From IMG/VR virus record IMGVR_UViG_3300008448_005720, positions 1 to 30,007 of that record: a stretch of DNA of 30,007 nt; one strand, written 5' to 3'. Below the pieces are notes generated by a model that did no database searches, had not been told where the DNA came from, and saw only the letters and a program-made list of their open reading frames with translations. Each line of letters opens with the position of its first letter. Position 1 is the first letter of the stretch. Shown here in pieces: positions 3,033 to 28,405 of the stretch. Origin of the DNA: a virus. The position numbers and the translations under genes were made by a program.

Positions 3033-3383
3033 TTACCTCTTACCGTATTTTAGATATACCATCGCGCCAGTCAATTCATCCTCTAGGATGATAGGCGCAT
3101 CCCTATTTTCTTTCGCGTACTGACGAATTGCTTCGCCGATCTCATCACGACCAACATAACTAGAATAATGTTCAAACTTTCTTTTTCCTAGTTTTGCTTT
3201 ATTAAATGCGTCAGACGAAACTACAAAGACTTCCTTGCCAGCGAACTTCTTGCGGCGAAGCATCTTTCCTTTTGTGGTCACACCCTTTGGAACTGGTGGT
3301 GTGTCTGGCTCAAGACCAGCAATCTGTCCACTGCCAACTGTGTTTACAATTGCTTCTTCTTGAATTTGTTTAAGTTTCTTCAT
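3033..3383 (-). CDS. Conserved phage protein with CTS-like N-terminus
   Basis: Function unknown. The 116-residue protein begins MKKLKQIQEEA, a short amphipathic leader ending in I-Q-E that resembles the T4 capsid-targeting sequence and prohead-protease site (see findings). NTVGSGQIAGLEPDTPPVPKG follows, a Gly/Pro-rich segment I recognise as recurring in small proteins of marine T4-like phages. The rest is basic (KGKMLRRKKFAGKEVFVV) with a mixed alpha/beta C-terminus (EDELTGAMVYLKYGKR). It sits 5 bp upstream of the holin-like gene, and the 57-bp gap behind its start is the longest in the window. A small internal or head-associated protein is plausible but unproven. Confidence 0.65.
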   Translation of the reverse strand: MKKLKQIQEEAIVNTVGSGQIAGLEPDTPPVPKGVTTKGKMLRRKKFAGKEVFVVSSDAFNKAKLGKRKFEHYSSYVGRDEIGEAIRQYAKENRDAPIILEDELTGAMVYLKYGKR

Positions 3384-3440: not shown

Positions 3441-3830
3441 TTAGATCTCTCTGAGAATATCAACAATAGTATTATCTAGTTGTATATCGCTCGACCTAAT
3501 ATCTACTCCACGAATACCTTTGACTATACTTGGCATAGCCGAAGTGTATACTAGAAATGTCTTTAGTGCACTATAGTCCTTTTCGTTATTCCTTAGAAAC
3601 AATATTCTTGTACTAGCCTCAACTCCAAATACATTCTGACAAAGAATAAGGTGATTCAATAATAACCTTTCCTTCATCTCACCAGTCAAACGATACCGAT
3701 GTAGTAATCGTTTGATGTACCTGAATGTCTTGTAGTCTTCATCAAACTCACTTCGAATGCAGTTTGGCTTCTCGTAGCACTTGGCTGCATATAACAAAAC
3801 ATTTGCATCATTCAAATCATTAAAAAGCAT
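3441..3830 (-). CDS. Conserved phage protein (DUF7207-like)
   Basis: A 129-residue, mostly helical soluble protein. The N-terminal pattern (LYAAKCYEKPNCIRSEFDEDYK), the central RYIKRLL...LTGEMKERLLLNHLI block and the later TRILFL...ALKTFLVY block match, from memory, a small protein family widespread in T4-like phages (DUF7207 as I recall it). Its function is not known to me. It has no TM segment, signal peptide or catalytic motif that I can see. It is separated by 3 bp from the gene upstream and followed by the 57-bp gap, so it may end one transcriptional segment. Confidence 0.7.
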   Translation of the reverse strand: MLFNDLNDANVLLYAAKCYEKPNCIRSEFDEDYKTFRYIKRLLHRYRLTGEMKERLLLNHLILCQNVFGVEASTRILFLRNNEKDYSALKTFLVYTSAMPSIVKGIRGVDIRSSDIQLDNTIVDILREI

Positions 3831-3833
3831 AGA

Positions 3834-4292
3834 TTAATATTCGTTGGTGTTACCTGCATCATCATCGCGCTTACGATACCAGTCTGAGTGGCGAACTGGC
3901 ATCTCTTCGCGGTCTCCAAGAACCTCCTCGGAGTCCATATTTAATAGATCGTCCAGTTCGTCATTGGAAACAACCTGAGCATAACCGTCAACGAATCCAT
4001 CTTCACCTGTGTCATAGACAACATAAAGATGATAATTTGACTCACCAAGCATGTACACTAATTCAGCGCCAAGGTCTAGGAAGTTATTGGTCGCAGACTG
4101 TGGTAGCGGGAACCCATACTGCTCTGTGACACCACGCAATTGATTCAAGAAGATTGGTGCATTTTGATATGGCTTGTCAGTTAATGCGTCTAGATCGGCA
4201 TTAATCTTATCCATGTTTTGCTCTAGATAGCGAGCATCTACTTGGATGATATCATCAAATGCTTCGTTTAGAAACTCATTGAAGGTTTGCAT
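3834..4292 (-). CDS. Putative prohead internal protein with T4-type capsid-targeting sequence
   Basis: Function unknown, but the N-terminus MQTFNEFLNEA closely matches the T4 internal-protein capsid-targeting sequence MKTYQEFIAEA, which the prohead protease gp21 cuts after (L/I)-x-E. Here the predicted cut is after E10. This match decides the start: ATG 4292, preceded by GGTGA, is preferred over an in-frame GTG at 4301. The mature part is acidic and mixed alpha/beta (LGAELVYMLGESNYHLYVVYD, then FVDGYAQVV...DELDDLL), ending in a charged tail (WYRKRDDDAGNTNEY). It overlaps the gene upstream by 17 bp. If the leader works as in T4, the protein is packed inside the head and could be injected with the DNA. 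Confidence 0.75.
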   Translation of the reverse strand: MQTFNEFLNEAFDDIIQVDARYLEQNMDKINADLDALTDKPYQNAPIFLNQLRGVTEQYGFPLPQSATNNFLDLGAELVYMLGESNYHLYVVYDTGEDGFVDGYAQVVSNDELDDLLNMDSEEVLGDREEMPVRHSDWYRKRDDDAGNTNEY

Positions 4293-4734
4293 CTTTCTCA
4301 CCGTCTAGGTTTGGTTTCATATTAATCTTGTTCTTTTTGCCTTTAGCAATATCAATGGCTTTTTGCGCCACGACTGCACTTTTTGCAGTGTCTGCTGCCT
4401 TTCTAGCAACACGAGAAGCAATTGTTCCAGCCTGTTTGGTCTTTGCTCTGTCTTCTAGTTCTTGCGCTCTTCTTTCGACATCAAACTTTTGCTGCGCTCT
4501 TTTGACATATGGCTTCATTTCTTCGTTCATCTCGCCTTCCATGTAGTTAGCAGCCGTCAGAATGTAATCTTCAGCAAGAGTAATCTTGTTCTGAACCCAC
4601 TCTGGTAGATTCGACTCTGGCTTTAGCATGTCGTGCATTCTTTTAGAATTGGCGATAATGCTCTTCAACTGCGACTTTGCCATATCGCCTTCGTAGTCAT
4701 ATTCGCCTTTGTCTTGTGGTGTGATGTCTGGCAT
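4276..4734 (-). CDS. Conserved marine-phage head-region protein (EYDYEGDMAKSQL family)
   Basis: The 152-residue protein carries in its N-terminal half the block EYDYEGDMAKSQLKSI, continuing NSKRMHDML, LPEWVQNKITLAEDYI and TAANYM (residues about 11-64). I recognise this block as recurring, alone or inside longer proteins, in marine T4-like phages; its function is unknown to me. The C-terminal half (about 65-140) is strongly helical and rich in Ala, Lys, Arg and Glu, so a coiled coil or basic helix bundle is likely. Together with the lysine-rich end, this would suit a core or DNA-contacting head protein. It lies between the CTS-bearing gene and the 611-residue modular protein, which has similar composition. 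Confidence 0.65.
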   Translation of the reverse strand: MPDITPQDKGEYDYEGDMAKSQLKSIIANSKRMHDMLKPESNLPEWVQNKITLAEDYILTAANYMEGEMNEEMKPYVKRAQQKFDVERRAQELEDRAKTKQAGTIASRVARKAADTAKSAVVAQKAIDIAKGKKNKINMKPNLDGEKDANLQ

Positions 4735-4738
4735 GTTA

Positions 4739-6574
4739 TTAACCCTTGTTTAGTGCTTTCTTTTTAGCTGATGCAATACGAGCCTTGACAACATCACCAT
4801 AAGTGATCTTCTTTGGATTGCCGTGCATCTTGGCTAGACTTACTTCTGTGTCGGTTTCTGGTGTTTTGCCACCGACTTCTTCACCTACGACTCTAGTCAC
4901 CATACGATTAACTTTATCGATGCCTTTTTGTCCTTGGCGTTTCCCAATATAATCCATCGCTTTGTCTGATTTGCGATTTAGGCGATTTGCTTCCTTTTTA
5001 CCTTCTTTGTTGTGAAGATTTGAAAGACCAGAATAGTCACTAAATTCAATTGCTTTAACTTGACTTGCGGCAGCAGCTTTACGCGCTAGTCCTGGTGAAA
5101 TTTCATCAATCTGCTCGACTTCTTCTGGAAGATTTGGTTTTGGCGAACGATTATATATTGAGGTTTTTCCGCCAGACTTTATTCCATAAGAATCTTTGCC
5201 AACCCTTCTTGCAATAGCCTGTTTTGGTGTCTCGTGGCCACCACGGCGACCTAATACATCACCACTTGATACTCTTGTAGAGGAACCTGTTTCTGCCTTT
5301 CGAGCAGCTAATCTAGTTTCTTTATCGACAAATTCATCAATCTGCTCGACTTCTTCGTTTTTACCACCCTTCGCTGCGTAGTATGCACCAAGAGCCTGTT
5401 GAATGCGCTCTTTCTTGCTCTTTCCAGCAAACTTTGGATTGTCTGACTTGACGAAGTCGCTGATCCACTTTGATGCTGGGTCAGCGGCTGTTAGTTTTTC
5501 TTCGATATACTTCATCTCTGTGTCCTCTGTTTTAAGGCTCTTTAAATTGTTCTCATCAATTACAGGACCATCAAGTTCAACACTATCGCCAACATATTTA
5601 CGACCTGGTTCATATACAGGAAATTTTTGTGCTGGGCGTGTTTTTGCAACCTGTTTAGTCAATTGCTTGTTGGCAAATTTTCGTGCATCCTGGGTGTTGC
5701 GAAGTTTTCTGGCTGGATTTGGATTGCCTTCCTTTTCTGCACTCATAGCGACAGCAACGGCACTCGGCGTTAAGGGTCTTTTTTCTTGGCTGACCTTTAG
5801 ATACTTTTTATAATTAACTTCATCAACCTGCTCGACTTCCTCTTTCTTCATACTATCCTTCATTGCCTTGCGAGCAAGACCGCGAACATATCGATAACCC
5901 GCTGGTTGCTTTCCTGGTGGCATCTTTGGTTTCTCCTTGACTGGACCGCCGAGTAGTTCTGCAGCGTCTTCTTTCGCGCCCTCATCAACCTGCTCGACTT
6001 CTTCGTTTGTTTTAGCGGCTTGCTTTTTTGCATATTCTGCACGAGCCTGAGCAAGAACTTCCTCGCCACGCTTACGGCTGGCATCGCTTGCTGCTTTTTC
6101 TCTGTCAAATGCGCGTTGCAATTTGACGGCTGCACTCATGCGCTTTGAGCCTTCATCCACTTGCTCGACTTCTTCTTTCTTCATTGCTTTCTTTTCTTTA
6201 GCAGTCATTCCTTCATACGGGCTTAAAGAAACCTTTGGATTAAATCCTGCCTTGATTCCAGCAACAATTCCCTTTGCCGTTGACATGTTCGAACCAGCCA
6301 TAACACTTGAGCCACCAGAACCAGCAGCACCGATTGGCGCACGACCGCCCTTTGCCATATACGCTGCCTGGCGAGCAGCATTAATTGCTCTGACAGAGTC
6401 TGGCTTCACTTCTGACGCCTTTCTTGGAGCAACTTTGACTCGTTTTGCTGCAGCAGCAGATTTGCCTCCAGTTTGAACACTGGTAGACGGCATTTCCATG
6501 TTATTTTTCTTGTACCATGCCTTTTGGGCTGACTGCGACATCTTGTGCAATAGTGCTGGAATCTTTACTGCCAT
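4739..6574 (-). CDS. Modular basic polyprotein with five EEVEQ(V/I)DE linkers
   Basis: The 611-residue, Lys/Ala/Glu-rich protein has no enzyme motif. The acidic octapeptide EEVEQVDE or EEVEQIDE occurs at residues 134-141, 191-198, 245-252, 407-414 and 484-491, splitting it into basic modules of about 45-155 residues. The module at about 354-402 (LTAADPASKWISDFVKSD, then KFAGKSKKERIQQAL and GAYYAAK) and the GLARKAAAAS module at 494-503 are ones I recognise from other marine phage proteins. The repeats end in (V/I)-D-E, close to the (L/I)-x-E consensus cut by T4 prohead protease gp21, so it may be a precursor of several internal head proteins. GAGGAA precedes ATG 6574, and the gene directly follows the cupin-like gene. 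The processing model is inference. Confidence 0.75.
   Translation of the reverse strand: MAVKIPALLHKMSQSAQKAWYKKNNMEMPSTSVQTGGKSAAAAKRVKVAPRKASEVKPDSVRAINAARQAAYMAKGGRAPIGAAGSGGSSVMAGSNMSTAKGIVAGIKAGFNPKVSLSPYEGMTAKEKKAMKKEEVEQVDEGSKRMSAAVKLQRAFDREKAASDASRKRGEEVLAQARAEYAKKQAAKTNEEVEQVDEGAKEDAAELLGGPVKEKPKMPPGKQPAGYRYVRGLARKAMKDSMKKEEVEQVDEVNYKKYLKVSQEKRPLTPSAVAVAMSAEKEGNPNPARKLRNTQDARKFANKQLTKQVAKTRPAQKFPVYEPGRKYVGDSVELDGPVIDENNLKSLKTEDTEMKYIEEKLTAADPASKWISDFVKSDNPKFAGKSKKERIQQALGAYYAAKGGKNEEVEQIDEFVDKETRLAARKAETGSSTRVSSGDVLGRRGGHETPKQAIARRVGKDSYGIKSGGKTSIYNRSPKPNLPEEVEQIDEISPGLARKAAAASQVKAIEFSDYSGLSNLHNKEGKKEANRLNRKSDKAMDYIGKRQGQKGIDKVNRMVTRVVGEEVGGKTPETDTEVSLAKMHGNPKKITYGDVVKARIASAKKKALNKG
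5102..6175 (-). repeat. Five dispersed 24-bp direct repeats encoding EEVEQ(V/I)DE
   Basis: Copies lie at 5102-5125, 5333-5356, 5819-5842, 5981-6004 and 6152-6175. On the plus strand each reads close to TTCATCAAYCTGCTCGACTT followed by CYTC, with only a few substitutions, mostly synonymous (two copies encode Ile instead of Val). The DNA is more conserved than needed for the peptide, so recent duplication or recombination between modules is likely. Confidence 0.9.
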
Positions 6575-6575
6575 T

Positions 6576-6854
6576 TTATAGTTCCTCGACCCTTATCTTT
6601 AGATCTGTATTCCCGCGTTTTATTCTATGATAGGTTTTAGCAGGAATAAAAAACCTATCACCTTTTTGTAACTTATTTGGAAGTTTATCATCGAACTGGA
6701 TTTCCCAGCCATCACCTTCCAAAATCTCTATAAATCTGCCATTTTTATCACGATGCCAAACCAGTTCCTCGTTCAACACATCGTGTTTGAAGATTCTTAT
6801 AAACGACCAATTATTTAGTTCTTGGTCTTCGTATGGTTTGTCTTTTACCACCAT
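6576..6854 (-). CDS. Small cupin-like protein
   Basis: A 92-residue protein with a single small beta-barrel signature: WHRDKNGRFIEILEGDGWEI (33-52), a QFDDKLP turn, then LQKGDRFFIPAKTYHRIKRG (62-81). His/Glu residues in the first block and the GD...IPA.TYHRI pattern in the second correspond to cupin motifs 1 and 2; H34 and H76 are possible metal ligands. Short cupin-like proteins of this type are common in T4-like marine phages. Substrate and role are unknown. The start overlaps the end of the 810-residue gene by 10 bp and the stop lies 1 bp before the modular protein's start, so it is co-expressed with both. Confidence 0.65.
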   Translation of the reverse strand: MVVKDKPYEDQELNNWSFIRIFKHDVLNEELVWHRDKNGRFIEILEGDGWEIQFDDKLPNKLQKGDRFFIPAKTYHRIKRGNTDLKIRVEEL

Positions 6855-9277
6855 GTTTTACCTGAATTGCTGAAAAATCTTGGATAACGGCATGCCCAGT
6901 AGGATGCGCTAGTCTTATCTTTGTTGGTCAAACAATGATGACGAGCAACAAAACTGCGAGTTGCTGCTGGGTCCATAAACTTCTTCTTCATTCCAGACTG
7001 ACTGAAACGAACCTTTTTCACGCCACCGTCGCCGCTGCGAACATAGACAGCACCACCACCGCCTTCGCGCCATGGTTTGCCAATACCCTTGCCGTCGGTC
7101 TTATCTTCTTCGTTCACAGGGACACAGTTAGGGACCATCTTGTCACCTTTCTTTTTCAATCCCTTTTGTGTGTAACCAGTCCAGCATGCTTCTTCTAGAC
7201 CTTCTTCGATTGGATAGTCAAGAACAACTGTCTGACCTTCGAACTCAGCAATCTCACCGATATCTGAATTGAGCATATCCAATTCATATTCATCAGTTGG
7301 CGTATACTTGCCTTCAGCATAAAGACGCTTCGCCTCAGAGAGCATCTCAAAGAACATCTCTGAGCCTGGACGGAAAATGTTTTCAGTAAACGAGATCTTG
7401 TTTTCTAGATGATACTCAACGGCTTCTTGTAAACTTGCTGATGGTGAAAGTTTGCGAGGTGTTTTTAAAAATGCCGTTAATTTTTTTGCTGGACGGGATG
7501 AGCCGCAACTAACTTCATCTAGTTCGGTTTCTTCACGAGCATAGGCACCAGTTGTAACAACAGGCATGCCGTCTAGGGCAGCGTCGCGACTTCTAGGTGG
7601 AACTATCTGTGACTTCTTTTTCTTGTTCGCAGTATCAAGAGTTGGAGTTACATCTACAGCCTCATCCATATCTGGGCAGCACTGTAGCAATTCATTCTCA
7701 AACATATCATCAACATTTTCGCGCAGGTCTTTGTCTGCGCCGTGGTAAGTGCCTTTACCTTTACTGATGTATGAATTTACACGAGCATGACCCCACTGTG
7801 ATGGTGTCGTTCCTGGACGGTGACCAGAGTTCCATGCTGCTACGCCACGGCGATATACCTTACGGAGCGTGGATACTGAGATGCCAGACTTTGCTGCCTT
7901 TGCGCTGAGCGATTTGTCTGATGCGCCTTCGTCAATTGTTTCTTCAGAAACACGACCCGTTTCCTTTCTCTTATTCATGACAGCCGTGATGTTGCCGCTA
8001 CGAGGCACTCGGCGAATCTTCTTGAGTTCTGCTTCGTCCATCATCTTACGGACTTTAAGTGTGTACTTGCTTGGTTTTGTTTTAGCAGTTGCATCACCAG
8101 GTGCTGGCTCGTATGCACGAGGATCGCTGTCTGAAAGTTTTGCTTTTTCTTTCCAATGAGCAGCCCTTGCTTTAGCAGTTGATGCTGATAGACCCGCAAC
8201 ATACTTCTTTGGTAGACCTGATGCTTTGTCTTTCGGAACTACTTTTTTCTCAGATAGAACCAGACCAAGAGAAACAAGTCGTTCTAGCAAACTTTCGATT
8301 TGACCGCCAAACATAATCTGTTCCATTTGGCTGGACTCATGTAGATTAATTGAATTGTTGAATACAAAACAATCTAATCCTTCTGCAAGTTTCTCAGCAC
8401 GATACCACTTCTCCAAACGCTTGTTTTCTAGTAATGGATCTTGTCTTTCCTCGTTACGAGCGCGGCTGACTTTATTGGACACAGAAACATACACTGTATC
8501 GAATGTGTAGCCTTCAAGAATATTCTTGACTAACTCTATTTTCTCAGCATCCATGCTACCGTTAATAACAATGTTCTGATTAGATTCAACTAACTCTGCT
8601 GCCTTTCCGTTAAGGATCTGGTCTAGTTGAACTTCTACGAGGTCGAAGCGTGAAAAGATGTTCTTAAGAACATAGTCTTTTCCGCTGCCTGGACCACCGA
8701 TCAAGAAAACGCCAATAGGAGTTGTTGTATTTTCGTTCATTGCTTCTTTAACCTTGTCATATATATGTGCGCCAAGTTTTTTGTCGCTATAGTGTGAAAC
8801 GAATTCGTCTTTTTTTCCAGCAGCAACTAATCCGCGAAGTTTAGAAGCAGACATTCCTTCTGCCCCTTCTGCGTCTGGATCTCGCTGTCCTGCTGAAACA
8901 ACATTAACTTTTTTGATGCCTGGATATTCTTTAGTTCTATATTTATTAAGCAGAGAATGGAAGTCATCAACACGATCTGAACCAACTACCATAGTGACAT
9001 GAGTGTGCCCTTGCTTTTCTAGGTGTTTCATTGCATCAATTGCAGTGCGTACTTTACCTCGAGAAACAACATTAGCAGTTGGAAATAGTCGATTCAATGC
9101 ACCAACTTTATCACCATGGCTCAATGGGTTCTTTTTGGAGTCCTGAGAATGCGACGGGAAAATATAATGCTTACCGCTGCTCTTTTCTGCATGTGCTTGA
9201 ACTGCAGAAACAAGTTTTCCGTGTCCAGCCTCAGTCGGAGGATTGAAGCGACCAAAAGTAAATGTTGCTTTACTCAT
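6845..9277 (-). CDS. Multidomain nucleotidyltransferase-kinase protein with phage modules
   Basis: An 810-residue mosaic. Residues 1-175: HIGH-superfamily nucleotidyltransferase with GRFNPPTEAGHGK (9-21), MVVGSDRVDDF (96-106) and MSASKLR (142-148) in place of the usual ISSTxxR motif. Residues 185-335: P-loop kinase-like domain with GGPGSGKD (194-201), of zeta-toxin or polynucleotide-kinase type. Residues about 355-375 (LPKKYVAGLSASTAKAR) and 450-520 (SGISVSTLRKVYRRG, GHRPGTT..QWGHARVNSYI) belong to a phage module I associate with DUF5824. The C-terminus has CWTGYTQKGLKKKG...VPNCVP (698-719) and a Cys/His-rich end (ARHHC, YWACRYPRFF). EETIDE (445-450) and EETELDE (582-588) resemble the prohead-protease-like linkers of the neighbouring 611-residue protein. 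It may be a processed, capsid-packaged enzyme; substrate unknown. Confidence 0.8.
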   Translation of the reverse strand: MSKATFTFGRFNPPTEAGHGKLVSAVQAHAEKSSGKHYIFPSHSQDSKKNPLSHGDKVGALNRLFPTANVVSRGKVRTAIDAMKHLEKQGHTHVTMVVGSDRVDDFHSLLNKYRTKEYPGIKKVNVVSAGQRDPDAEGAEGMSASKLRGLVAAGKKDEFVSHYSDKKLGAHIYDKVKEAMNENTTTPIGVFLIGGPGSGKDYVLKNIFSRFDLVEVQLDQILNGKAAELVESNQNIVINGSMDAEKIELVKNILEGYTFDTVYVSVSNKVSRARNEERQDPLLENKRLEKWYRAEKLAEGLDCFVFNNSINLHESSQMEQIMFGGQIESLLERLVSLGLVLSEKKVVPKDKASGLPKKYVAGLSASTAKARAAHWKEKAKLSDSDPRAYEPAPGDATAKTKPSKYTLKVRKMMDEAELKKIRRVPRSGNITAVMNKRKETGRVSEETIDEGASDKSLSAKAAKSGISVSTLRKVYRRGVAAWNSGHRPGTTPSQWGHARVNSYISKGKGTYHGADKDLRENVDDMFENELLQCCPDMDEAVDVTPTLDTANKKKKSQIVPPRSRDAALDGMPVVTTGAYAREETELDEVSCGSSRPAKKLTAFLKTPRKLSPSASLQEAVEYHLENKISFTENIFRPGSEMFFEMLSEAKRLYAEGKYTPTDEYELDMLNSDIGEIAEFEGQTVVLDYPIEEGLEEACWTGYTQKGLKKKGDKMVPNCVPVNEEDKTDGKGIGKPWREGGGGAVYVRSGDGGVKKVRFSQSGMKKKFMDPAATRSFVARHHCLTNKDKTSASYWACRYPRFFSNSGKTWW

Positions 9278-10413
9278 ATCACGCTCTTCTGCGCTTTAAA
9301 TGTTGCTGAACGCTTGCGGTTTGCTTCAGTAAATTTTCTAGGAACGAATTTCATTCCACCAGAAACGAATCCTTCACCAGCGGCTTCTTCTCCATCGATT
9401 TTATGAGAATACCCACCACTGGCTGTTTTGGATAGGGCATCAGCAATTGTGTATCCAGCCTTTTGAATATGATGGTGAATATCAAAAGTTTTATCAAACT
9501 TATCCAGATTATCATTTACATGATTGATCGCCGCACGCATCTCTTCTGCTTTTTGATTCTTAGCCTTTTCTGTTTTTACAGAATCGATTCTTTTCTGGTG
9601 ATGCTTTTCTAGGAACTTGGTATAGCCCTTTGCGTTTGGCTTCTCACCAGTATCAACGGTTGAGTTTGCATAACGCAATAAAGTCTCTTCATGACCTTCG
9701 TGGTGTTTATTAGAATGTTTTTGCGACAGTTTCTTGGCTGCAGCAATATGCTCCATCGCTTTTCTTTTTGCGTCTGGAGATAGTTTTCTTTCTTCACCAG
9801 AAACGAGATGACTCATCAGATGGACATCTGGGTGTTCTTGCAACTCGCCTTCACCGATTGGGGATGTGCTGCCATCAGCAGCAATGCGTGAGTGAAGCGC
9901 AATGCTCAATGGAGCCTTTGCAAGTTTTTTTCCTTCTGCAGATTTCTTGTCTACAGAGTAACGGATAGTATTTGGTTTGTGACCGATATTGCCATCTTCT
10001 TCGGTGCGGTCTTCAAGAGAACTGAGATAACCACCCTGATATTCACCTGCACCTTTTGGAAGCACTTTATGAATATGCTTGTGGATATTCATGAGTGGTC
10101 CAGCGATATATGGCTTTGCGCTGTGCTGTTTCTTTATGTCCTCGGCAGAGAAGTTATAGGCTGCACCAGCACCCTTATACTTTACACCGACCTTGCCTTC
10201 TGGTGTGCGAATGGCTTGGAAGGACATGCGGTCGTCGATCTTACGAGTGATCGGAGTACGACCGCTGATGACACCTTGAATCTTGGAGAGAGCCGAACCA
10301 ACTGCACCACGACGAGTTGCAAACGCTGATTCAGCAGGATGGGGTAGGTGTTGTATTCCGCGAACTGGTTTCTTTTGCTCGTTTAATGGAATAAATTGTC
10401 TGAACCCAAACAT
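9274..10413 (-). CDS. Conserved phage protein (DUF6267-like) with CTS-like leader
   Basis: The 379-residue soluble protein resembles, from memory, the DUF6267 family that accompanies the nucleotidyltransferase gene in marine T4-like phages; function unknown. The N-terminus MFGFRQFIPLNEQ ends in L-N-E and resembles a capsid-targeting leader. The conserved core runs from TRKIDDRMSFQAI (57-69) through GKVGVKYKGAGAAYNF to KPYIAGPL and GEYQGGYLSS. K58-I-D-D is reminiscent of motif I (KxDG) of the ligase/nucleotidyltransferase fold, but no other ligase motif is evident. The C-terminal half is His/Lys-rich and helical. A candidate late box lies 29 nt upstream, GGAGA precedes ATG 10413, and the stop overlaps the next start by 4 bp. 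Confidence 0.7.
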   Translation of the reverse strand: MFGFRQFIPLNEQKKPVRGIQHLPHPAESAFATRRGAVGSALSKIQGVISGRTPITRKIDDRMSFQAIRTPEGKVGVKYKGAGAAYNFSAEDIKKQHSAKPYIAGPLMNIHKHIHKVLPKGAGEYQGGYLSSLEDRTEEDGNIGHKPNTIRYSVDKKSAEGKKLAKAPLSIALHSRIAADGSTSPIGEGELQEHPDVHLMSHLVSGEERKLSPDAKRKAMEHIAAAKKLSQKHSNKHHEGHEETLLRYANSTVDTGEKPNAKGYTKFLEKHHQKRIDSVKTEKAKNQKAEEMRAAINHVNDNLDKFDKTFDIHHHIQKAGYTIADALSKTASGGYSHKIDGEEAAGEGFVSGGMKFVPRKFTEANRKRSATFKAQKSVI

Positions 10414-10453: not shown

Positions 10454-11233
10454 TTATTTCTTCATATTGGCGATTGCTTGTACTAGAGCACCTTCAAGAT
10501 TAGACATGTTCTCGTGGGCAGGGATCGTGCAGGTAGACCTTCCGGCGGCAGTAGCAGCCTTAAACTCTTCTGCAGTGAACCATGTGGGGCTGAGACCCAT
10601 GACTTCTGCAAGTTCATGCATGTTCACAGAGCCTTTGTTGACAAGATTAAAGTAGCCGTTTGGCTCCTCTTGTTCCATCAGGGTGCAGGCAACTTCCACT
10701 GCTTCGTCTAGGTCAGTCAAAGAGTTCTCGCCAGCATCGATTAACTTACCAGTCTTGGCATAGTTATAGACCTTTGTGAGATAGTTCTTGGGCTCATTGA
10801 CGCCAGTAAATGGCATACGGATACGATAAACCTGCGCCTTATCGCCAAGATAGACATCTGACACACCCTTGGATACTGAGTAGATGCTACCGAAATAGTT
10901 CGGCGCAGCATCGACATCGTAGATATCACCCGAGTAGATACAGCCGCTTGAGAAGTGAGCCAGACGAGTGCGCCATGACTTGCTGCATGCCTCTGCAAGC
11001 AATGCTGGGAAAATTGCATTGGCTTCAATAGTTCCCTGCTTGTCAAACTCACAAGCGTCAACATTCGGGCTTCCTGTTTTGCCAGCGCAGTTCACGACCC
11101 AATCAAACTTATTGTTTTCAATAGTTTCAAAGACATCTCTGTGGGAGCAAAATGTCACCACATGCCCACGACTGAGCAATTCCTTGAATACCTTTTTACC
11201 TGTCCAACCTCTACCGACTACTAGAAAATGCAT
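10454..11233 (-). CDS. rmlD: RmlD-like NDP-4-keto-sugar reductase
   Basis: Extended short-chain dehydrogenase of 259 residues, slightly shorter than typical RmlD (about 290-300). The N-terminus has the dinucleotide motif VVGRGWTGKK (5-14). The active site has SS at 95-96 and Y118-x3-K122 (YSVSK). Late blocks include RIRMPF and the sugar-nucleotide region GVNEPKNYLTKV. With RmlA and RmlB immediately upstream, the likely reaction is reduction of a dTDP-4-keto-6-deoxyhexose to dTDP-L-rhamnose or a relative. No RmlC epimerase is present, so the product could instead be a D-configured sugar. GAGGATC precedes ATG 11233; only 2 bp separate it from rmlA. The symbol follows family and context. Confidence 0.75.
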   Translation of the reverse strand: MHFLVVGRGWTGKKVFKELLSRGHVVTFCSHRDVFETIENNKFDWVVNCAGKTGSPNVDACEFDKQGTIEANAIFPALLAEACSKSWRTRLAHFSSGCIYSGDIYDVDAAPNYFGSIYSVSKGVSDVYLGDKAQVYRIRMPFTGVNEPKNYLTKVYNYAKTGKLIDAGENSLTDLDEAVEVACTLMEQEEPNGYFNLVNKGSVNMHELAEVMGLSPTWFTAEEFKAATAAGRSTCTIPAHENMSNLEGALVQAIANMKK

Positions 11234-11235
11234 AA

Positions 11236-12111
11236 TTAGATCCTCGTGTGTAAAATTCTATACAAATACTTACCATAATCCGACTTGGCATACTTATCAG
11301 CCTGTTCTTCAACCTGTTTTTGTGTGACCCAAGCGTTCTTGTAGGCAATCTCTTCTGGGCATGCAATCATTGTTCCAGTTCTACGCTGAACCGAACCAAC
11401 AAATACAGAGGCTTCTGATAATGCCTCAAATGTTCCAGTATCAATCCACGCAACACCACGGTTCAAGATCTCAACCTTGCAGTCATGATTCTGCATGTAG
11501 ATCTTGTTGATGTCAGTAATTTCTAACTCACCACGAGCAGATGGCTTAATCTGATACGAGTAGTCAATGACCTTGTTGTCGTAGAAATACAGACCAGTCA
11601 CCGCATAGTTGCTCGGCGGAGATTGTGGTTTTTCGTGCACATCAATCGGATCGCCGTTATCGTTGAACTCAATCACACCGAATCTTTCGGGGTCATGTAC
11701 ATGATACGCGAAGAGTGTGCAGCCAGCACTCGACCAATTAGCGTAACTGAATCGGTTAATGAGATCGTTACCATAAAAGATATTATCGCCAAGAATTAGA
11801 GCAACATCATGATGACCAATCCACTTCTCAGCAATACGGAAACATTCAGCGATACCTTTTGGTTCTGGCTGGACTGCATAAGAGATGATTAATCCCCACT
11901 GTGAGCCATCACCAAGCAGCCGCTGAAACTGAGCATTATCCTCTGGGCTGGTGATGATCATGATATCTCTGATTCCAGCCATCATCAATGTCGACAATGG
12001 ATAGTAGATCATTGGTTTATCATAAACTGGCAATAACTGCTTTGATAAGACAGCCGTGCATGGATATAGGCGAGTACCTAATCCGCCAGCAAGAATAATT
12101 CCTTTTCTCAT
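11236..12111 (-). CDS. rmlA: Glucose-1-phosphate thymidylyltransferase
   Basis: A 291-residue protein, full length for RmlA. It catalyses dTTP + glucose-1-P to dTDP-glucose, the first step of dTDP-6-deoxysugar synthesis. The nucleotide-binding motif GGLGTRLYP starts at residue 9; SKQLLPVYDKPMIYYPLSTL, EPKGIAECF, LILGDNIFYG (with the metal-binding Asp) and GELEITDIN are all conserved. The chosen ATG at 12111 overlaps the rmlB stop (ATGA) and puts the GGxGTR motif at the normal distance from the N-terminus; an ATG 57 nt upstream would add an uncharacteristic extension. No missing catalytic residue is evident. Confidence 0.93.
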   Translation of the reverse strand: MRKGIILAGGLGTRLYPCTAVLSKQLLPVYDKPMIYYPLSTLMMAGIRDIMIITSPEDNAQFQRLLGDGSQWGLIISYAVQPEPKGIAECFRIAEKWIGHHDVALILGDNIFYGNDLINRFSYANWSSAGCTLFAYHVHDPERFGVIEFNDNGDPIDVHEKPQSPPSNYAVTGLYFYDNKVIDYSYQIKPSARGELEITDINKIYMQNHDCKVEILNRGVAWIDTGTFEALSEASVFVGSVQRRTGTMIACPEEIAYKNAWVTQKQVEEQADKYAKSDYGKYLYRILHTRI

Positions 12112-13049
12112 GAGTACCACTCCAAAGTTTTTTCTAGCCCAAGAGCAATCGGCGTCTTGGCTCTCCACCCTAACTCTTTGAGTATTTTACCTGAATCCAT
12201 TGAATAACGCAAATCATGTCCCTTTCGGTCAGACACAAAATTAATCCAAGTCTGCAACATGTTCTTACCCATAATATCTAAAATCATACTGACCATCTCA
12301 ATATTGGTCGCTTCAAATCCCCCGCCGATATTGTATCGCTCGCCAGACTTAAAGTTTTCACCGATAGTTAATAGTGCATCACAGTGGTCTTCAACAAACA
12401 ACCAGTCACGAATATTCAGACCTTTACCATAGACTGGCACTGGTGTGTTGTTTTGAATATGACGAATTACTGTCGGAATAAATTTTTCCTGATTCTGCCG
12501 AGGACCATAGTTGTTAGAACAATTGGTAACAACTGCATCAATCTTGTGCGTGTTCACATAAGCGCGAACTAGATGGTCGCTGGCTGCTTTGGTCGCCGAG
12601 TATGGATTGCGAGGATCGTATGGTGTGTTCTCATTAAACGGAGGATCGTCATGAGATAAAGAACCAAAGACCTCATCAGTAGAAACATGGACTAACTTGC
12701 CTCCATATTTCTTGATGCACTTCAGGATGTTATGAGTGCCGTTAATATTGGTGCTAAGAAAGGCATCGTCACTGTTAATAGAATTATCAACATGAGACTC
12801 AGCCGCAAAATGGAAGGTCACCTCAGGAGTGAAAGTTGCATACATTTCCTCAAGTTTTTCCATGTCGCAGATGTCGACATTTTTGATGGTCAGTCTCCAA
12901 TCGGAGATGACATCCTTGAGGTTATTGATGTCTGCTGAATAAGAAAAATTATCCAGCACAATAATCTCGTCTGAAGGATATCGCTTCAGATGAGAGATAA
13001 CAAAGTTAGAACCAATAAATCCCAAACCACCAGTTACAAATGTAGTCAT
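12108..13049 (-). CDS. rmlB: dTDP-glucose 4,6-dehydratase
   Basis: A 313-residue extended SDR enzyme that converts dTDP-glucose to dTDP-4-keto-6-deoxyglucose. Visible motifs: TGGLGFIGSNFV (6-17) for NAD+, AAESHVDNSI, the dehydratase-specific T124-D125-E126 (HVSTDEVFG) and catalytic Y150-x3-K154 (YSATK), then NNYGPRQNQEKFIP and GLNIRDWLFVEDHC. The ends are close to normal, about 20-40 residues shorter than many bacterial copies. GAGG lies before ATG 13049, 6 bp downstream of the gene ending at 13056, and the stop overlaps rmlA. With rmlA it gives the phage its own supply of the 4-keto-6-deoxy intermediate. Confidence 0.93.
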   Translation of the reverse strand: MTTFVTGGLGFIGSNFVISHLKRYPSDEIIVLDNFSYSADINNLKDVISDWRLTIKNVDICDMEKLEEMYATFTPEVTFHFAAESHVDNSINSDDAFLSTNINGTHNILKCIKKYGGKLVHVSTDEVFGSLSHDDPPFNENTPYDPRNPYSATKAASDHLVRAYVNTHKIDAVVTNCSNNYGPRQNQEKFIPTVIRHIQNNTPVPVYGKGLNIRDWLFVEDHCDALLTIGENFKSGERYNIGGGFEATNIEMVSMILDIMGKNMLQTWINFVSDRKGHDLRYSMDSGKILKELGWRAKTPIALGLEKTLEWYS

Positions 13050-20507: not shown

Positions 20508-20704
20508 TCTTCGCTGCTGGTAGTTTCCATAGATTGGCGCTTAATTTTAAATCCAACATGTTTAGCGTGTGCGTTGATAAACCCACGCTTTAATTCACCA
20601 CGCTCATGCGAATCCTTCAACCAGCCATTAGCCTCAGCCATTGCTAACATACGCTTAAATTGGCGCGGAAGTTTAGCATCAAAAAAATCACTGCGATTAG
20701 CCAT
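20504..20704 (-). CDS. Small hypothetical phage protein
   Basis: A 66-residue basic, helical protein (RSDFFDAKLPRQFKRMLAMA...NGWLKDSHERGELKRGF). It lacks TM segments and recognisable motifs and ends in a short acidic tail (METTSSEE). It overlaps the glycosyltransferase gene upstream by 8 bp and the next small gene by 4 bp, so it belongs to the same polycistron between the sugar cassette and the polymerase. Its support comes from tight packing and normal composition; function unknown. Confidence 0.6.
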   Translation of the reverse strand: MANRSDFFDAKLPRQFKRMLAMAEANGWLKDSHERGELKRGFINAHAKHVGFKIKRQSMETTSSEE

Positions 20705-21404
20705 TTAATAATTCCTCACACTTTTTCCAGAACTGTTCTTGTTGACCATCTACTCTGATCTGGAAGTTGTGCCAGAATAGATCTCCCATCACCGAATCGC
20801 CGTAGGTCGTTCCAAGACCATAATTCGGTAATTCATTTTCTAATGTCCAATATGGTCTACGGTCTTGTTCCCAATCATATCGGTATACATCTCTATCATA
20901 CCTGACTGGAGGCACAAAGTCAACTGCAATTTTATTCGCTTCAGCGGCATAAGTGTATTCTTCTGCAACATCACCACGAGAAGTTTCCATTGCCGATGGT
21001 CGACCAATTTTGTCAAAATTGGCTGCGCTCAAAGCAAGAGCAGATGGCGCCGCGAATAGATGATTGTTGTTTTGAATATGCCCAGACCGTTGCGCATTAC
21101 CAATCAATTTACCTTCTAGTGCCTTTGTCAGATAAAACTCAATTGCGTTTGCGCTAACTGGTAGACAATCGATATCAAGAAATAGCACAGCATCAAAGTC
21201 TAGTTGCTTCTCAATTTTTAGAGTGGATACAGACTGTCCATTTAATGACCAGACATAATCCATAAACATGCCGTGAGGAATCTCACCCTTAATAACAAGA
21301 TGCTGTAGTTTAAGTGGATTAAACTTTTCAACAACCTTTCTCTGTAGTTCTACAGTTTTTGGGTCGATATTCGGCATAAAGTATGATGCGATACAGGCTT
21401 TCAT
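20697..21404 (-). CDS. Putative glycosyltransferase (GT-A, DxD)
   Basis: A 235-residue soluble protein. The segment DFDAVLFLDIDCLPVSANAI (69-88) carries D77-I-D79, the DxD metal/nucleotide-sugar site of a GT-A fold, after an N-terminal strand-helix part (MKACIASYF...). Later parts include NNNHLFAAPSALALSAANFD and the His-containing GDLFWHNFQI, which may complete the acceptor site. It closes the sugar cassette, with the start overlapping the nucleotidyltransferase stop by 4 bp. The likely role is adding a sugar, perhaps the heptose-like product of the neighbours, to an unknown acceptor. The donor cannot be read from sequence. Confidence 0.7.
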   Translation of the reverse strand: MKACIASYFMPNIDPKTVELQRKVVEKFNPLKLQHLVIKGEIPHGMFMDYVWSLNGQSVSTLKIEKQLDFDAVLFLDIDCLPVSANAIEFYLTKALEGKLIGNAQRSGHIQNNNHLFAAPSALALSAANFDKIGRPSAMETSRGDVAEEYTYAAEANKIAVDFVPPVRYDRDVYRYDWEQDRRPYWTLENELPNYGLGTTYGDSVMGDLFWHNFQIRVDGQQEQFWKKCEELLNG

Positions 21405-21862
21405 GTGCGTTCCCTTTCGGCTTCGTGGACTCTTTTGCGTAAACTGCTGGAACTGAAACTGTGGTCTCTACTATTAAAGACCAGTTGAATTCCACGCTTC
21501 TCACAGATTGCGCGACCAGTAAACTCCTTCTCCATATACTCTACACCAAGAATGCGAACATCGACTGGCAATGTGAGTAGAATATCTTCTACATCTTTTT
21601 CGGTGTTGTAGACAATAATCTCATCTACAAAACGAACAGCACTCAGAGCAATCTGTCGTTCTACAATAGATTGGATTGGAGGATTTTTCTCTGGGCGATC
21701 TGCGTTGGCATTGTTCTGTAATCCACAGATTAGATAATCGCAGTGTTGTTTGGCTTCAGCAAGCATAGCCACATGACCAGCATGCAAAAGGTCAAACTGC
21801 GAAAATGTGATCCCAACCTTAAGACCCTGTTTCTTTAACTCGGTATATTTTCCGAAAATCAT
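21401..21862 (-). CDS. Cytidylyltransferase-family nucleotidyltransferase (TagD/HldE-C-like)
   Basis: A 153-residue single-domain enzyme of the HxGH superfamily: VGITFSQFDLLHAGHVAML with H27-A-G-H30, a central VERQIALSAVRFVDEIIVYN block (equivalent to the ER/R-x-DE region) and SSSSLRKR near the C-terminus in place of ISST-R. Glycerol-3-phosphate cytidylyltransferases and the C-terminal half of HldE share this layout. Next to a GmhA-like isomerase and an HddA-like kinase, nucleotidyl transfer to a heptose-1-phosphate is the best guess. Start ATG 21862 overlaps the isomerase stop (ATGA); an ATG at 21895 would also be in frame but adds residues before the first strand. Confidence 0.75.
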   Translation of the reverse strand: MIFGKYTELKKQGLKVGITFSQFDLLHAGHVAMLAEAKQHCDYLICGLQNNANADRPEKNPPIQSIVERQIALSAVRFVDEIIVYNTEKDVEDILLTLPVDVRILGVEYMEKEFTGRAICEKRGIQLVFNSRDHSFSSSSLRKRVHEAERERT

Positions 21863-22356
21863 ATAACAGAGTGCAGGATAATTCCGTGGACGCATTCAAC
21901 AATGCCATAATCTCTGCTAGGTACATAGAAGTGCAACTCAGAATCATGTTGATATTCTGCGCGCAGTTTATTGTTAGGATCAAATCCAGACAATGTCACC
22001 ATCGGATATTTACCAGCGCAAAACTCAGCAGCATTTAGAATATTTTGCGAGTTGCCAGACGAGGAGATGAGAATGACCAGAGACTTTGGCTGAACAAAAT
22101 GTTTTAGAAACTTCGTGTACGCATGCTCCCATCCATAGTCATTGGCATAGCATGTCAGGCGCGAAGAGTCACAGAAACAAATTGCTTGTTTGCCGAGTAC
22201 TTTGGTATAGTCTTGAGCAATATGACCCGTAATTGCATTACTGCCACCATTACCCAAAAGGATAATGTGGTCATTGTCACGAATAACAGTCTTAAGATGC
22301 TCAAGATCGATTGGGTCGATTGCGTCTATACAATTTTTAAGTTCTTGTAAATTCAT
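21859..22356 (-). CDS. SIS-domain sugar isomerase, GmhA-like
   Basis: The 165-residue protein is slightly short for GmhA (about 190). GmhA converts sedoheptulose-7-P to D-glycero-D-manno-heptose-7-P. The SIS phosphosugar site is visible as LLGNGGSNAITGHIAQDY (33-50) and LISSSGNSQNIL (96-107). LTCYANDYGWEHAYTKFL (67-84) and the C-terminal VECVHGIILHSVI fit the GmhA branch better than KdsD or GlmS types. The C-terminal helix stops early, at the overlap with the next gene. It overlaps the GHMP kinase by 20 bp. This context favours heptose synthesis; another phosphosugar is possible. Confidence 0.8.
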   Translation of the reverse strand: MNLQELKNCIDAIDPIDLEHLKTVIRDNDHIILLGNGGSNAITGHIAQDYTKVLGKQAICFCDSSRLTCYANDYGWEHAYTKFLKHFVQPKSLVILISSSGNSQNILNAAEFCAGKYPMVTLSGFDPNNKLRAEYQHDSELHFYVPSRDYGIVECVHGIILHSVI

Positions 22357-23302
22357 TTGTTAAGTTTATAAATTTCAATCCAGTTTCAGAAATGCTAATT
22401 TTATGACAACGCTCATATTCTTTTTCAAGGCAAGAATTTTTATGAGAGAACATCAAAAAGTAGCCGCCATTGCCAGCACCACATAGTTTATGCGATAAGA
22501 CTCTATCATCATACCGTAATCTATTATCCAAGTCAACTAAAATCTCATTCTCGCATATCAATGGGCTGAGTTGCTTCTTCTTTTCCCAAGAGTCTTGCAT
22601 CACAGAATTGAACCATCCTATGTCGCAACGATTAATTGCTTTCTCGAGGTTTTCTACATCCTTGAACAAAGGAACAGATTTATCAATGTCTAAACTCTCA
22701 AGAACCTTGGTCGAGTTTCGAAGCACACCTGTATATAGTAGATGGATATCCATCTCACTAAAGATTCTAGTGTTCAGATATTTGATTTCTGGGTCTGCGT
22801 TCTTAAAGAAATTGATGCGCTTTAGCCCACCCATACTGCCGTAGAAATCTTGCTGACCAACTAGAGGATTAAATTTGCGCTCAATCGTCTCAGCAATCTT
22901 ACAGACTTCGAATTCTGTGATGTTCTCACCGCGCCAAACATATACTGCTTTAATCAAGGCTTGTAGATAAGAAGACGATGCCGCTAATCCCGAACCAACC
23001 GAGTAGATATCTGACACAAGACTACAGTTAATCTTATCTACATTTAGATACTCAAAGCAATGGCGAACCATCTCGTTCTGGATATCTGCAATGCTTTTGA
23101 CAGTTTCTCTTTTCGAATAACTTATATTGTAATTCTCATCAATAGTGTTGATGCCAAACACATCTTGGTGAATGGTGATATAAGTGCGAAGCGAAGAGGG
23201 AAAACTAATTACTGCACCACGACCATACTTATCAATAAAGTGTGGGTGGTCTGTAGACCCACCTACAAGAGAAATGCGCAGAGGGCAAGAGGCTACAATC
23301 AT
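22337..23302 (-). CDS. GHMP-family sugar kinase, HddA-like
   Basis: A 321-residue kinase. The N-terminal strand CPLRISLVGGSTDHPHF (6-22) and the ATP loop VGSGLAASSS (102-111) are those of the heptose kinase HddA/fucokinase branch of GHMP kinases. NPLVGQQDFYGSMGGLKRI and LCGAGNGGYFLMF are the third and C-terminal motifs. HddA phosphorylates D-glycero-D-manno-heptose-7-P at C1. The following GmhB phosphatase is not in the window and would have to come from the host or from elsewhere in the genome. ATG 23302 overlaps the methyltransferase stop (ATGA); an upstream TTG is in frame but less likely. Confidence 0.82.
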   Translation of the reverse strand: MIVASCPLRISLVGGSTDHPHFIDKYGRGAVISFPSSLRTYITIHQDVFGINTIDENYNISYSKRETVKSIADIQNEMVRHCFEYLNVDKINCSLVSDIYSVGSGLAASSSYLQALIKAVYVWRGENITEFEVCKIAETIERKFNPLVGQQDFYGSMGGLKRINFFKNADPEIKYLNTRIFSEMDIHLLYTGVLRNSTKVLESLDIDKSVPLFKDVENLEKAINRCDIGWFNSVMQDSWEKKKQLSPLICENEILVDLDNRLRYDDRVLSHKLCGAGNGGYFLMFSHKNSCLEKEYERCHKISISETGLKFINLTNEFTRT

Positions 23303-24000
23303 TTCTTCACGCAAGCAAATAAGTCTTGATGATGAGCAGGATGCCCTCTGTTAGACTCATTAAACGGAAAATCTATCAGTTTAAAATGCTCTGACAGTTT
23401 GTTGGTCCACCAGTCTTTACCATGAATACATTTATGATAGTTTAATTCCTCTGGCGTGTTTTTAGAATTTGTGTTTCTTTTTGACTCGCCCATGTGTATA
23501 CTGGAAACAAATAGACCACCATCTTTGAGGTGGTTGTTCACAAGATTAAAATAAGTATCCAGATCTTCGTCGTTGAAATGTTCTATCACATCCCAGCAAG
23601 TAATAATGTCGAATTTAAAAGGCACATCATTTAGCAATACCTGGTACTTCTTAGTTACATCGCATGTAAAAAGGATTTTATTTCCAAATTCTTGCCAATT
23701 TTTATGACCTGCTGGCATCATCCCGACTTCCTCGACCATCTCTTGTCTAATATTCAAACAATGGTCTGAACCCTCAAGACCTACAGCCAGATGCCCCTTT
23801 TTATGTAGATGGCAAACTAATTCGCCGCCCGCGCAGCCCAAGTCCATGAAATTAATCTGTTTTATATCTTTATCATCAAAATAATCTTCTAACGATTCTA
23901 CGAATCCCAGATTCAAATTATTATCGTGGTAGATTCCTTCTGGGTGTTTATGGTCGTCTGATTCAACAGCCAGTGGATAATCTGTGACCACCTTAAACAT
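23299..24000 (-). CDS. Class I SAM-dependent methyltransferase
   Basis: A 233-residue protein with the SAM-binding core INFMDLGCAGGELVCHL (motif I), VGLEGSDH (motif II, acidic Glu), FDIITCWDVIEHFNDEDL (motif IV/post-IV) and LKDGGLFVSSIH (motif V/VI). This is the UbiG/Methyltransf_11-type layout. C-terminal HPAHHQDLFACV may contribute to acceptor binding. The target is unknown; in this cassette O-methylation of a sugar or glycan is the likeliest use. ATG 24000 overlaps the C-methyltransferase stop by 8 bp, and the stop overlaps the kinase start, so translation is coupled. No DNA-methyltransferase target-recognition motif is seen. Confidence 0.8.
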   Translation of the reverse strand: MFKVVTDYPLAVESDDHKHPEGIYHDNNLNLGFVESLEDYFDDKDIKQINFMDLGCAGGELVCHLHKKGHLAVGLEGSDHCLNIRQEMVEEVGMMPAGHKNWQEFGNKILFTCDVTKKYQVLLNDVPFKFDIITCWDVIEHFNDEDLDTYFNLVNNHLKDGGLFVSSIHMGESKRNTNSKNTPEELNYHKCIHGKDWWTNKLSEHFKLIDFPFNESNRGHPAHHQDLFACVKK

Positions 24001-25207
24001 TTTTATCTTCCAAGTATTCTGGAAAGTAACGGATAAACATATCTTTAGGATCATCACGAACTGCCTTGACGCGCTCGCGAATCTCCTTGTAGAAGTTCCA
24101 TGCTAGTGGCACAAAACAAATTTTATTGATTGGTTCTCGAAGCAGATCAATAGAACGAATAGGAATATTCATTCCTGGCGTCATATAATCCCACTTCAGA
24201 TAGTTATCATCAATAATAAAGTCCAGTTCTAACTGCAGATAATTTAGCAGCGTGTTACCCTTCGCGGCTGCACCATAACCAATGAGAACATATCCATCGT
24301 TTCGTAAACGAGTTAGATTGTCAATAAGTTGCTGCTTGGTTTCTGCTGCCTTGCGGGTGAATTTCTCATACATTTCAACCGTGTAGATGCCCTCAAGAGT
24401 TTCTTGATTCAACAGTTTAGCCAGGTCAGCCTCATCGCACTTTTTCTTTGTGAGCGAGAACAAGAAAGACTTGCTGTGAATGTCAGTCTTCACGATACTC
24501 GAAACATACAGCCCATGATTAAGCGCAAGTTTTTGAATCGAACGCCCAGTAAAGTATGACGAGTGCTCATGATAGATAACATCAAACTCGTTGTTCTGGA
24601 ACATATCACACTGCGATGTCTGGATAAAGATTGTTCCTTCATCAGAAAGAACTTTCACGCAAGAAGCGATGAAGTCATTTGGGTCTTGGACATGCGGAAG
24701 AACATGGAATGCCATGATTAGGTCGAATTTTCCGCGTTCTTGCTTGAGTCTATCAGCAAAAGTATTGTTCCAGTAATCGACATAAACATCTAATTCACGC
24801 AGTTGTGATAATGCTCTGATGTTTTGTGCTGGATCTACGCCGACACACTCAATACCTTTATTCTTGAACATCTCAAGAAGCAGACCAGAGTTACATGCAA
24901 TCTCAAGAACATTCTTCGGCTTTTCAATCTTGCTTAGAATGTAGTCTGTAGTCCACTCGAAGTAATCCGTGAGCGTTTTGCTGGTATCTGAGATGTAGAG
25001 ATAATGCTCAAACATCTTCGCGGGTTCAACAGAAACTGACAACTGCGAGTGCCAGCATTTAGTGCATAACCGCATCTGTAGTGGATACTTTTCGAGTACC
25101 TCGCCCTTATGGTAAGAGTTGGCGAGTGGCTGGTCTGTTAGATCTAAGTAATCAACTAGATTCTCGTCACCACAGACTAGACATGCATTATTTTCCTTGT
25201 ATGACAT
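23993..25207 (-). CDS. NDP-sugar C-methyltransferase (zinc-binding, TylC3 type)
   Basis: A 404-residue, three-part enzyme. An N-terminal zinc module has C9-x2-C12 and C48-x2-C51-x-H53. The SAM core starts at VLEIACNSGLLLEMF (100-114) and continues with MAFHVLPHVQDPNDF. The C-terminal module has GYGAAAKGNTLLNYL and DFIIDDNYLKWDYMTPGMN, typical of the Methyltransf_13/11/14 family that C-methylates NDP-4-keto-deoxyhexoses (TylC3, EvaC). Relatives also occur in capsule and LPS loci. A keto-sugar nucleotide substrate, perhaps made from the cassette's or the rml products, is inferred. ATG 25207 is chosen so that translation starts just before the zinc module; it overlaps the epimerase gene by 20 bp. 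Confidence 0.82.
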   Translation of the reverse strand: MSYKENNACLVCGDENLVDYLDLTDQPLANSYHKGEVLEKYPLQMRLCTKCWHSQLSVSVEPAKMFEHYLYISDTSKTLTDYFEWTTDYILSKIEKPKNVLEIACNSGLLLEMFKNKGIECVGVDPAQNIRALSQLRELDVYVDYWNNTFADRLKQERGKFDLIMAFHVLPHVQDPNDFIASCVKVLSDEGTIFIQTSQCDMFQNNEFDVIYHEHSSYFTGRSIQKLALNHGLYVSSIVKTDIHSKSFLFSLTKKKCDEADLAKLLNQETLEGIYTVEMYEKFTRKAAETKQQLIDNLTRLRNDGYVLIGYGAAAKGNTLLNYLQLELDFIIDDNYLKWDYMTPGMNIPIRSIDLLREPINKICFVPLAWNFYKEIRERVKAVRDDPKDMFIRYFPEYLEDKNV

Positions 25208-28403: not shown

Positions 28404-28405
28404 TA

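What the first reader, a model, noticed from the sequence alone, without database searches (positions are those of the whole stretch)
4263..4292. N-terminus that closely matches the T4 capsid-targeting sequence
MQTFNEFLNEA versus the T4 internal-protein leader MKTYQEFIAEA: the T, aromatic, E-F, hydrophobic, E and A positions all agree, and the end L-N-E fits the (L/I)-x-E cleavage rule of prohead protease gp21. In T4 this leader sends internal proteins into the prohead, where they are cut and later injected. The protein is thus a candidate injected effector of unknown function.
Basis: partly seen in the sequence, partly recalled or inferred. Interest (0 to 1): 0.75.

Follow-up and report, generated by a model that had tools for sequence, protein, structure and literature searches.

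The report
Phage protein tagged for capsid packaging
A small protein of an uncultured T4-like lake virus carries, at its front end, the same ten-residue tag that phage T4 uses to pack proteins inside its head, and the same tag sits on several unrelated proteins encoded by its relatives, one type of which has been detected in purified particles of a marine virus.

Summary
On the minus strand, ATG at 4292 opens a 152-residue ORF (3834-4292) beginning MQTFNEFLNE|A. It is not chance. In 26 distinct homologues M1, F4 and E10 are invariant, position 7 is only F/Y and position 8 only L/I: the residues reported for capsid targeting (4, 7) and processing (8, 10) of T4 IPIII. Residues 11-18 vary freely. 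In a 173-kb relative that encodes a gp21 prohead protease, the leader opens 4 of 210 genes (0.015 expected) and never occurs internally; in T4 the same scan finds only IPII, IPIII and 61.1. The leader sits on at least six unrelated bodies. In cyanophages it opens the T4-GC190 cytidylyltransferase (S-SM1: MKKFSAFLNEA), which published mass spectrometry found in purified virions.

Most likely this is the precursor of a head-internal protein, targeted to the prohead core and cut by gp21 after E10. The mature part (142 residues, pI 4.05) belongs to no known family. Injection and effector function remain inference; a structural core role is equally possible. Adjacent is a cassette protein with five EEVEQ(V/I)DE linkers that look like gp21 sites. 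New member of a known kind, in a lineage where I found no published description of such leaders.

The parts
4263..4292 (-). N-terminal leader MQTFNEFLNE, a T4-type capsid-targeting sequence; predicted gp21 cut after codon 10 (between 4263 and 4262)
   Evidence: invariant M1, F4, E10, F/Y7, L/I8 in 26 homologues; positions 4/7 target and 8/10 process in T4 IPIII (PMC9026906)
3837..4262 (-). Predicted mature protein, 142 aa, pI 4.05, mixed alpha/beta, no known family
   Evidence: AlphaFold mean pLDDT 72.9 with leader at low confidence; no PDB match
3834..4292 (-). Whole precursor ORF, 152 aa
   Evidence: 20 then 44 homologous loci in IMG/VR
3441..3830 (-). DUF7207 protein (phrog_407), the next gene downstream in the loci compared
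   Evidence: synteny in 22 loci
3033..3383 (-). 116-aa protein with a weak leader (MKKLKQIQEEA); its homologues carry a strict leader followed by a copy of the stretch of the major capsid protein gp23 that follows the prohead cleavage site
   Evidence: 54% identical to G001 156919-157284, which matches G001 gp23 at 1e-13
4276..4734 (-). 152-aa protein holding a module that is part of the cassette protein in relatives
   Evidence: 64-aa stretch 81% identical to residues 335-398 of the 610-aa cassette protein of G001
4739..6574 (-). Cassette protein, 611 aa, five EEVEQ(V/I)DE linkers that resemble gp21 sites, modules permuted between relatives
   Evidence: 5 sites vs 0.16 expected; 146 vs 1.6 expected in 42 ORFs; module order
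6845..9277 (-). Cytidylyltransferase-like multidomain protein, related to cyanophage T4-GC190 which is found in S-SM1 virions
   Evidence: phrog_3041 6e-65 and phrog_395 2e-37, S-SM1 GC190 matches both; PMC3037559
6576..6854 (-). Cupin-like protein of the same cluster
   Evidence: synteny
9274..10413 (-). DUF6267 protein with a lengthened leader-like start MFGFRQFIPLNE; homologues have the strict leader (MLQFSAFLTEA)

Best explanation
The ORF encodes the precursor of a head-internal protein of an uncultured T4-like phage. Its first ten residues bind the prohead core through the aromatic residues at 4 and 7, so the protein is built into the prohead. The prohead protease gp21 then cuts after E10, in L8-N9-E10. 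The acidic 142-residue mature protein stays in the head beside the DNA and probably leaves with it at infection. Shown here: the leader, its conservation pattern, its reuse on unrelated proteins, gp21 in related genomes. Inferred from T4: targeting and cleavage. Inferred without direct support: ejection and what the mature protein does.
For: Exact positions known to matter in T4 IPIII are the conserved ones. Leader on unrelated bodies: 152-aa family, DUF6267 family, 121-aa gp23-like family, 429-aa and 351-aa proteins, an HAD phosphatase, HEAT-repeat paralogues near gp21. Zero internal occurrences. The most diverged homologue that keeps the leader reads MKTFKEFISE while its body scores only E 1e-6. 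gp21 in all three contigs over 120 kb, with H85 and S140 of T4 gp21 conserved in the G001 copy. S-SM1 cytidylyltransferase T4-GC190 starts MKKFSAFLNEA and was found in purified virions (PMC3037559); leader hits in P-SSM2 (one of two), Syn9 and S-CREM1 (one of four) are cytidylyltransferase or NadR-like genes. Conserved synteny in 22 loci.
Against: No virion data for this protein or clade. The window is a 30-kb fragment without gp21. The mature body is acidic, while T4 IPI is basic. One very diverged homologue (L129) lacks the leader, and in L111 the leader-like stretch is internal to a longer frame. Two window neighbours carry only weak versions of it. HTVC008M gave no strict leader hit although it has related cluster genes. 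The virion location of GC190 by MS does not show that its leader was cut.
Confidence: 0.82

Rival explanations
1. It is a prohead core (scaffold) component that is targeted and cut, like IPIII or gp67 of T4, and serves head assembly; it is not an effector in the new host cell.
For: Fixed syntenic position next to DUF7207 in all 22 loci compared and long stretches of invariant residues are more than expected of an arms-race protein; T4 IPIII itself affects head morphology (PMC9026906). Acidic like T4 gp67, whose C-terminus is a run of acidic residues.
Against: Body identity to G001 is 60%, lower than replication proteins (81-91%), so it evolves faster than core genes; some DUF7207 loci lack it.
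Confidence: 0.4
2. It is an injected effector or counter-defence protein; the leader only gets it into the head.
For: T4 IPI and Alt are delivered this way (PMC9026906). The leader is shared with enzyme-like bodies such as the HAD phosphatase and cytidylyltransferase. A weak Foldseek match to a 1134-aa phage protein annotated Acb1.
Against: No domain match of any kind; conserved and syntenic rather than patchy; no host known.
Confidence: 0.4
3. The resemblance is chance or a general property of N-termini.
For: The motif is short and of low complexity.
Against: 0.015 expected vs 4 found at G001 starts; 0 internal; invariance across 26 homologues.
Confidence: 0.03
4. The leader targets the protein to the prohead but is not removed.
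For: In T4 IPIII targeting and processing are separable (PMC9026906).
Against: Positions 8 (L/I) and 10 (E), which matter for processing, are as conserved as 4 and 7.
Confidence: 0.1

Closest known systems
T4 internal proteins IPII and IPIII and their capsid-targeting sequence (CTS)
   Same: Ten-residue N-terminal leader with aromatic residues at 4 and 7, L/I at 8, E at 10, gp21-type cut
   Different: Mature body unrelated (no match in 50,697 phage records); acidic (T4 IPI is basic); syntenic next to DUF7207 and a cytidylyltransferase gene
Cyanophage T4-GC190 cytidylyltransferase (S-SM1, P-SSM2, Syn9)
   Same: Same leader (S-SM1 MKKFSAFLNEA), related gene cluster, virion protein by published MS in S-SM1
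   Different: The body is an enzyme-like protein, not homologous to this one
T4 Alt
   Same: N-terminal propeptide ending in E10 (MELITELFDE), head-internal, injected (PMC9026906)
   Different: Leader residues differ and the body is an ADP-ribosyltransferase
T4 gp61.1 and the 121-aa neighbours
   Same: Strict leader (MKTFKEFIKE)
   Different: The body copies the gp23 stretch at its gp21 site (T4 6e-9; G001 1e-13)
Polyvalent proteins of phages (PMC5512222)
   Same: Injected multidomain proteins, sometimes processed; resembles the neighbouring cassette protein
   Different: That paper concerns other domain sets; here the linkers resemble gp21 sites and the finding itself is single-domain

Membership tests
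T4-type CTS-bearing internal head protein | Leader of about 10 residues with targeting residues 4 and 7 | tested here: met
   F4 invariant, F/Y7 in 26 homologues; T4 roles from PMC9026906
T4-type CTS-bearing internal head protein | (L/I)-x-E cleavage site at residues 8-10 | tested here: met
   L/I8 and E10 in all 26; cleavage itself not observed
T4-type CTS-bearing internal head protein | Same leader on unrelated mature proteins of the same phages | tested here: met
T4-type CTS-bearing internal head protein | gp21-type prohead protease in the genome | tested here: inconclusive
   Present in three relatives with H85 and S140 conserved in the G001 copy; the window's own record is a 30-kb fragment
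T4-type CTS-bearing internal head protein | Present in virions with the leader removed | not testable with these tools
   Only indirect: S-SM1 GC190 in virions (PMC3037559)
T4-type CTS-bearing internal head protein | Ejected into the host with the DNA | not testable with these tools
   No experiment available
Homologue of T4 IPI/IPII/IPIII (body) | Sequence similarity of the mature body | tested here: not met
   tblastn against 50,697 phage records, no match

The most novel reading that the evidence does not exclude
The window lies in a head-cargo locus: several leader-tagged proteins next to a combinatorial polyprotein whose modules are joined by EEVEQ(V/I)DE linkers that gp21 cuts inside the prohead. 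The phage thus packs and releases a swappable set of small proteins from one gene, together with single-domain cargo such as the protein of this finding.
Probability: 0.35. Interest if true: 0.78.

Novelty: new member of a known kind. Interest (0 to 1): 0.56.

Why it matters
If right, the T4 head-cargo tag reaches across to the marine and freshwater T4-like phages (cyanophages and relatives). It becomes a simple sequence rule that predicts which of their many unknown proteins are packed in the head. In the genomes scanned it pointed to a virion-proven cytidylyltransferase, a HAD phosphatase, HEAT-repeat proteins and gp23-like proteins. Existing virion mass-spectrometry data could test it at once.

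Tried and rejected
Known family for the body: Pfam, PHROGs, PADLOC and PDB sequence and fold searches gave nothing usable. The viral structure library gave only unnamed phage proteins (E 5.5e-7 to 7e-4) and a weaker match to a 1134-aa protein annotated Acb1 (E 0.007), which I could not inspect. T4 late promoter TATAAATA near the gene: one match in the window, as expected by chance. gp21 in the window's own record: not found, but the record is a fragment. Isolated phages with a homologue: none. Single-linkage clustering of the cassette modules chained nearly everything into one group and was replaced by seeded modules. Papers on such leaders in cyanophages: the only paper holding both terms is a T4 review.

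Full report
Observation. The stretch 4263-4292 is the first ten codons, on the minus strand, of an ORF that starts with ATG at 4292 and ends at 3834 (152 aa). The N-terminus reads MQTFNEFLNE followed by A. T4 IPII and IPIII, read from the T4 record, begin MKTYQEFIAEA.

What kind of virus. The window carries homologues of gp43, UvsX and gp41 of T4-like phages in the order seen in cyanophage S-SM1; DNA matches in isolated phages are short and to Synechococcus phages. The longest well-covered relative is a 172,991-bp IMG/VR contig (G001), whose gp23 is about 56% identical to that of cyanophages and of Pelagibacter phage HTVC008M. The host is unknown.

More than chance. A first search found 20 homologous loci and a second 44. 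In 26 distinct sequences M1, F4 and E10 never change, residue 7 is F or Y, residue 8 is L or I, and the following residues 11-18 are markedly more variable. A review of T4 head assembly reports that in IPIII residues 4 and 7 carry targeting and residues 8 and 10 carry processing (PMC9026906). So the positions conserved here are the ones with known function. Codons at positions 4 and 8 vary synonymously between relatives.

Genome-wide test. The leader pattern fits 4 of 210 gene starts in G001, against 0.015 expected, and no internal site; in T4 the strict scan returns IPII, IPIII and 61.1 only. Around the homologous loci 35 of 392 ORFs carry it near the start, none internally; most of the 35 are the query family, but others have unrelated bodies: DUF6267-type, a 121-aa gp23-like protein, a 429-aa and a 351-aa protein. 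In contigs G007 and G008 it also opens a HAD phosphatase, HEAT-repeat paralogues near gp21 and an unknown 210-aa protein. Two of the seven G008 pattern hits look like chance (one lies on the opposite strand inside the gp21 gene).

Diverged members. Loci fetched through the neighbouring DUF7207 gene gave distant members that keep the leader (MLNFKTFINE, MQTFKQFLEE, MLKFKEFLNE, MKTFKEFISE), the last with a body that scores only E 1e-6. One member (L129) lacks it. In L111 the leader-like stretch KKFKDFIAE is internal to a longer open frame. Five DUF7207 loci, one of them very short, have no detectable family member.

Protease. gp21 (Peptidase_S77) is present in all three contigs longer than 120 kb that carry the gene. 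The T4 gp21 residues H85 and S140 are conserved in the G001 copy. The window record itself is a 30-kb fragment in which gp21 was not found.

Independent experimental anchor. Published mass spectrometry of purified cyanophage S-SM1 virions detected a cytidylyltransferase, T4-GC190 (PMC3037559). In the S-SM1 record that gene begins MKKFSAFLNEAER. The strict DNA pattern in Syn9, and one of two hits in P-SSM2, fall on the annotated cytidylyltransferase, and one of four in S-CREM1 on a NadR-like gene. The backward-read control pattern gave one match in nine genomes against 16 forward. The window encodes a relative of this protein, four genes upstream of the finding (6845-9277). This supports packaging of leader-bearing proteins in this wider lineage; it does not show cleavage, nor anything about the finding's own protein.

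Surroundings. In 22 loci the order is cytidylyltransferase, cupin, cassette protein, this gene, DUF7207, then in most the gp23-like protein and the endolysin, as far as each contig reaches. The cassette protein (4739-6574) holds five EEVEQ(V/I)DE linkers. In related loci such linkers occur 146 times in 42 ORFs against 1.6 expected, followed mostly by A, G, V, K or L (the 42 ORFs were chosen for holding two or more, so the fair total is 168 against 6.3 in 448 ORFs). Modules between them recur in different orders in different genomes. The same motif stands near the N-terminus of S-SM1 gp22 (MEQVDEG) and near the C-terminus of gp21 (QEIDEA in S-SM1, KQIDEI in G001). That these linkers are gp21 sites is an inference; the T4 rule is (L/I)-x-E (PMC9026906), and V at P3 is an extension of it.

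gp23-like neighbour. The 121-aa G001 protein matches the stretch of gp23 that follows its presumed cleavage site (22 of 44 identical, E 1e-13). T4 gp61.1 matches T4 gp23 across its cleavage site (17 of 37, 6e-9). The window homologue is 3033-3383, with a weak leader.

The mature protein. 142 aa, pI 4.05, mixed alpha/beta with a low-confidence leader in a moderate-confidence model. No match in Pfam, PHROGs, PADLOC, PDB sequence or fold. Its function is therefore open. Conserved position and long invariant stretches suggest a structural core role; its faster evolution than replication proteins (60% against 81-91% identity to G001) and the T4 precedents of IPI and Alt allow an injected effector. 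I give these equal weight.

Verdict. Packaging signal and cleavage site: very likely (0.82). Injected effector: about 0.4. Known kind of signal on a new protein family, in a lineage where I found no published description of it.

Noticed in passing
window 4739-6574: Cassette protein with five EEVEQ(V/I)DE linkers; modules are permuted between relatives. Candidate prohead-processed polyprotein.
   Followed up: partly
G001 156919-157284 (L030:919-1284); window 3033-3383: Small protein that copies the gp23 stretch following the prohead cleavage site, behind a CTS-like leader; T4 gp61.1 does the same.
   Followed up: partly
G001 151361-151867 (L029:14861-15367): Ferritin/Dps-like protein in the same cluster, Pfam E 1.5e-21, with a possible leader MKYHNLVEQAETMINEQ.
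   Followed up: no
L147:1501-2097 and G001 27372-28037: HAD phosphatase (polynucleotide-kinase-like) with a strict leader.
   Followed up: partly
L144, L146 (G008 about 76-80 kb): Two tandem HEAT-repeat paralogues with a strict leader, a few kb from gp21.
   Followed up: no
L111:4059-4994: Homologue in a longer open frame, so that the leader-like KKFKDFIAE is internal.
   Followed up: no
G001 92093-92974: 293-aa ORF between gp67-like and gp68-like genes starting MKLKDLKQKLTEA, another possible long leader.
   Followed up: no
window 10454-13049 and 20697-28415: Sugar-nucleotide, epimerase, glycosyl- and methyltransferase-like ORFs inside the phage genome, judged from the translations only.
   Followed up: no
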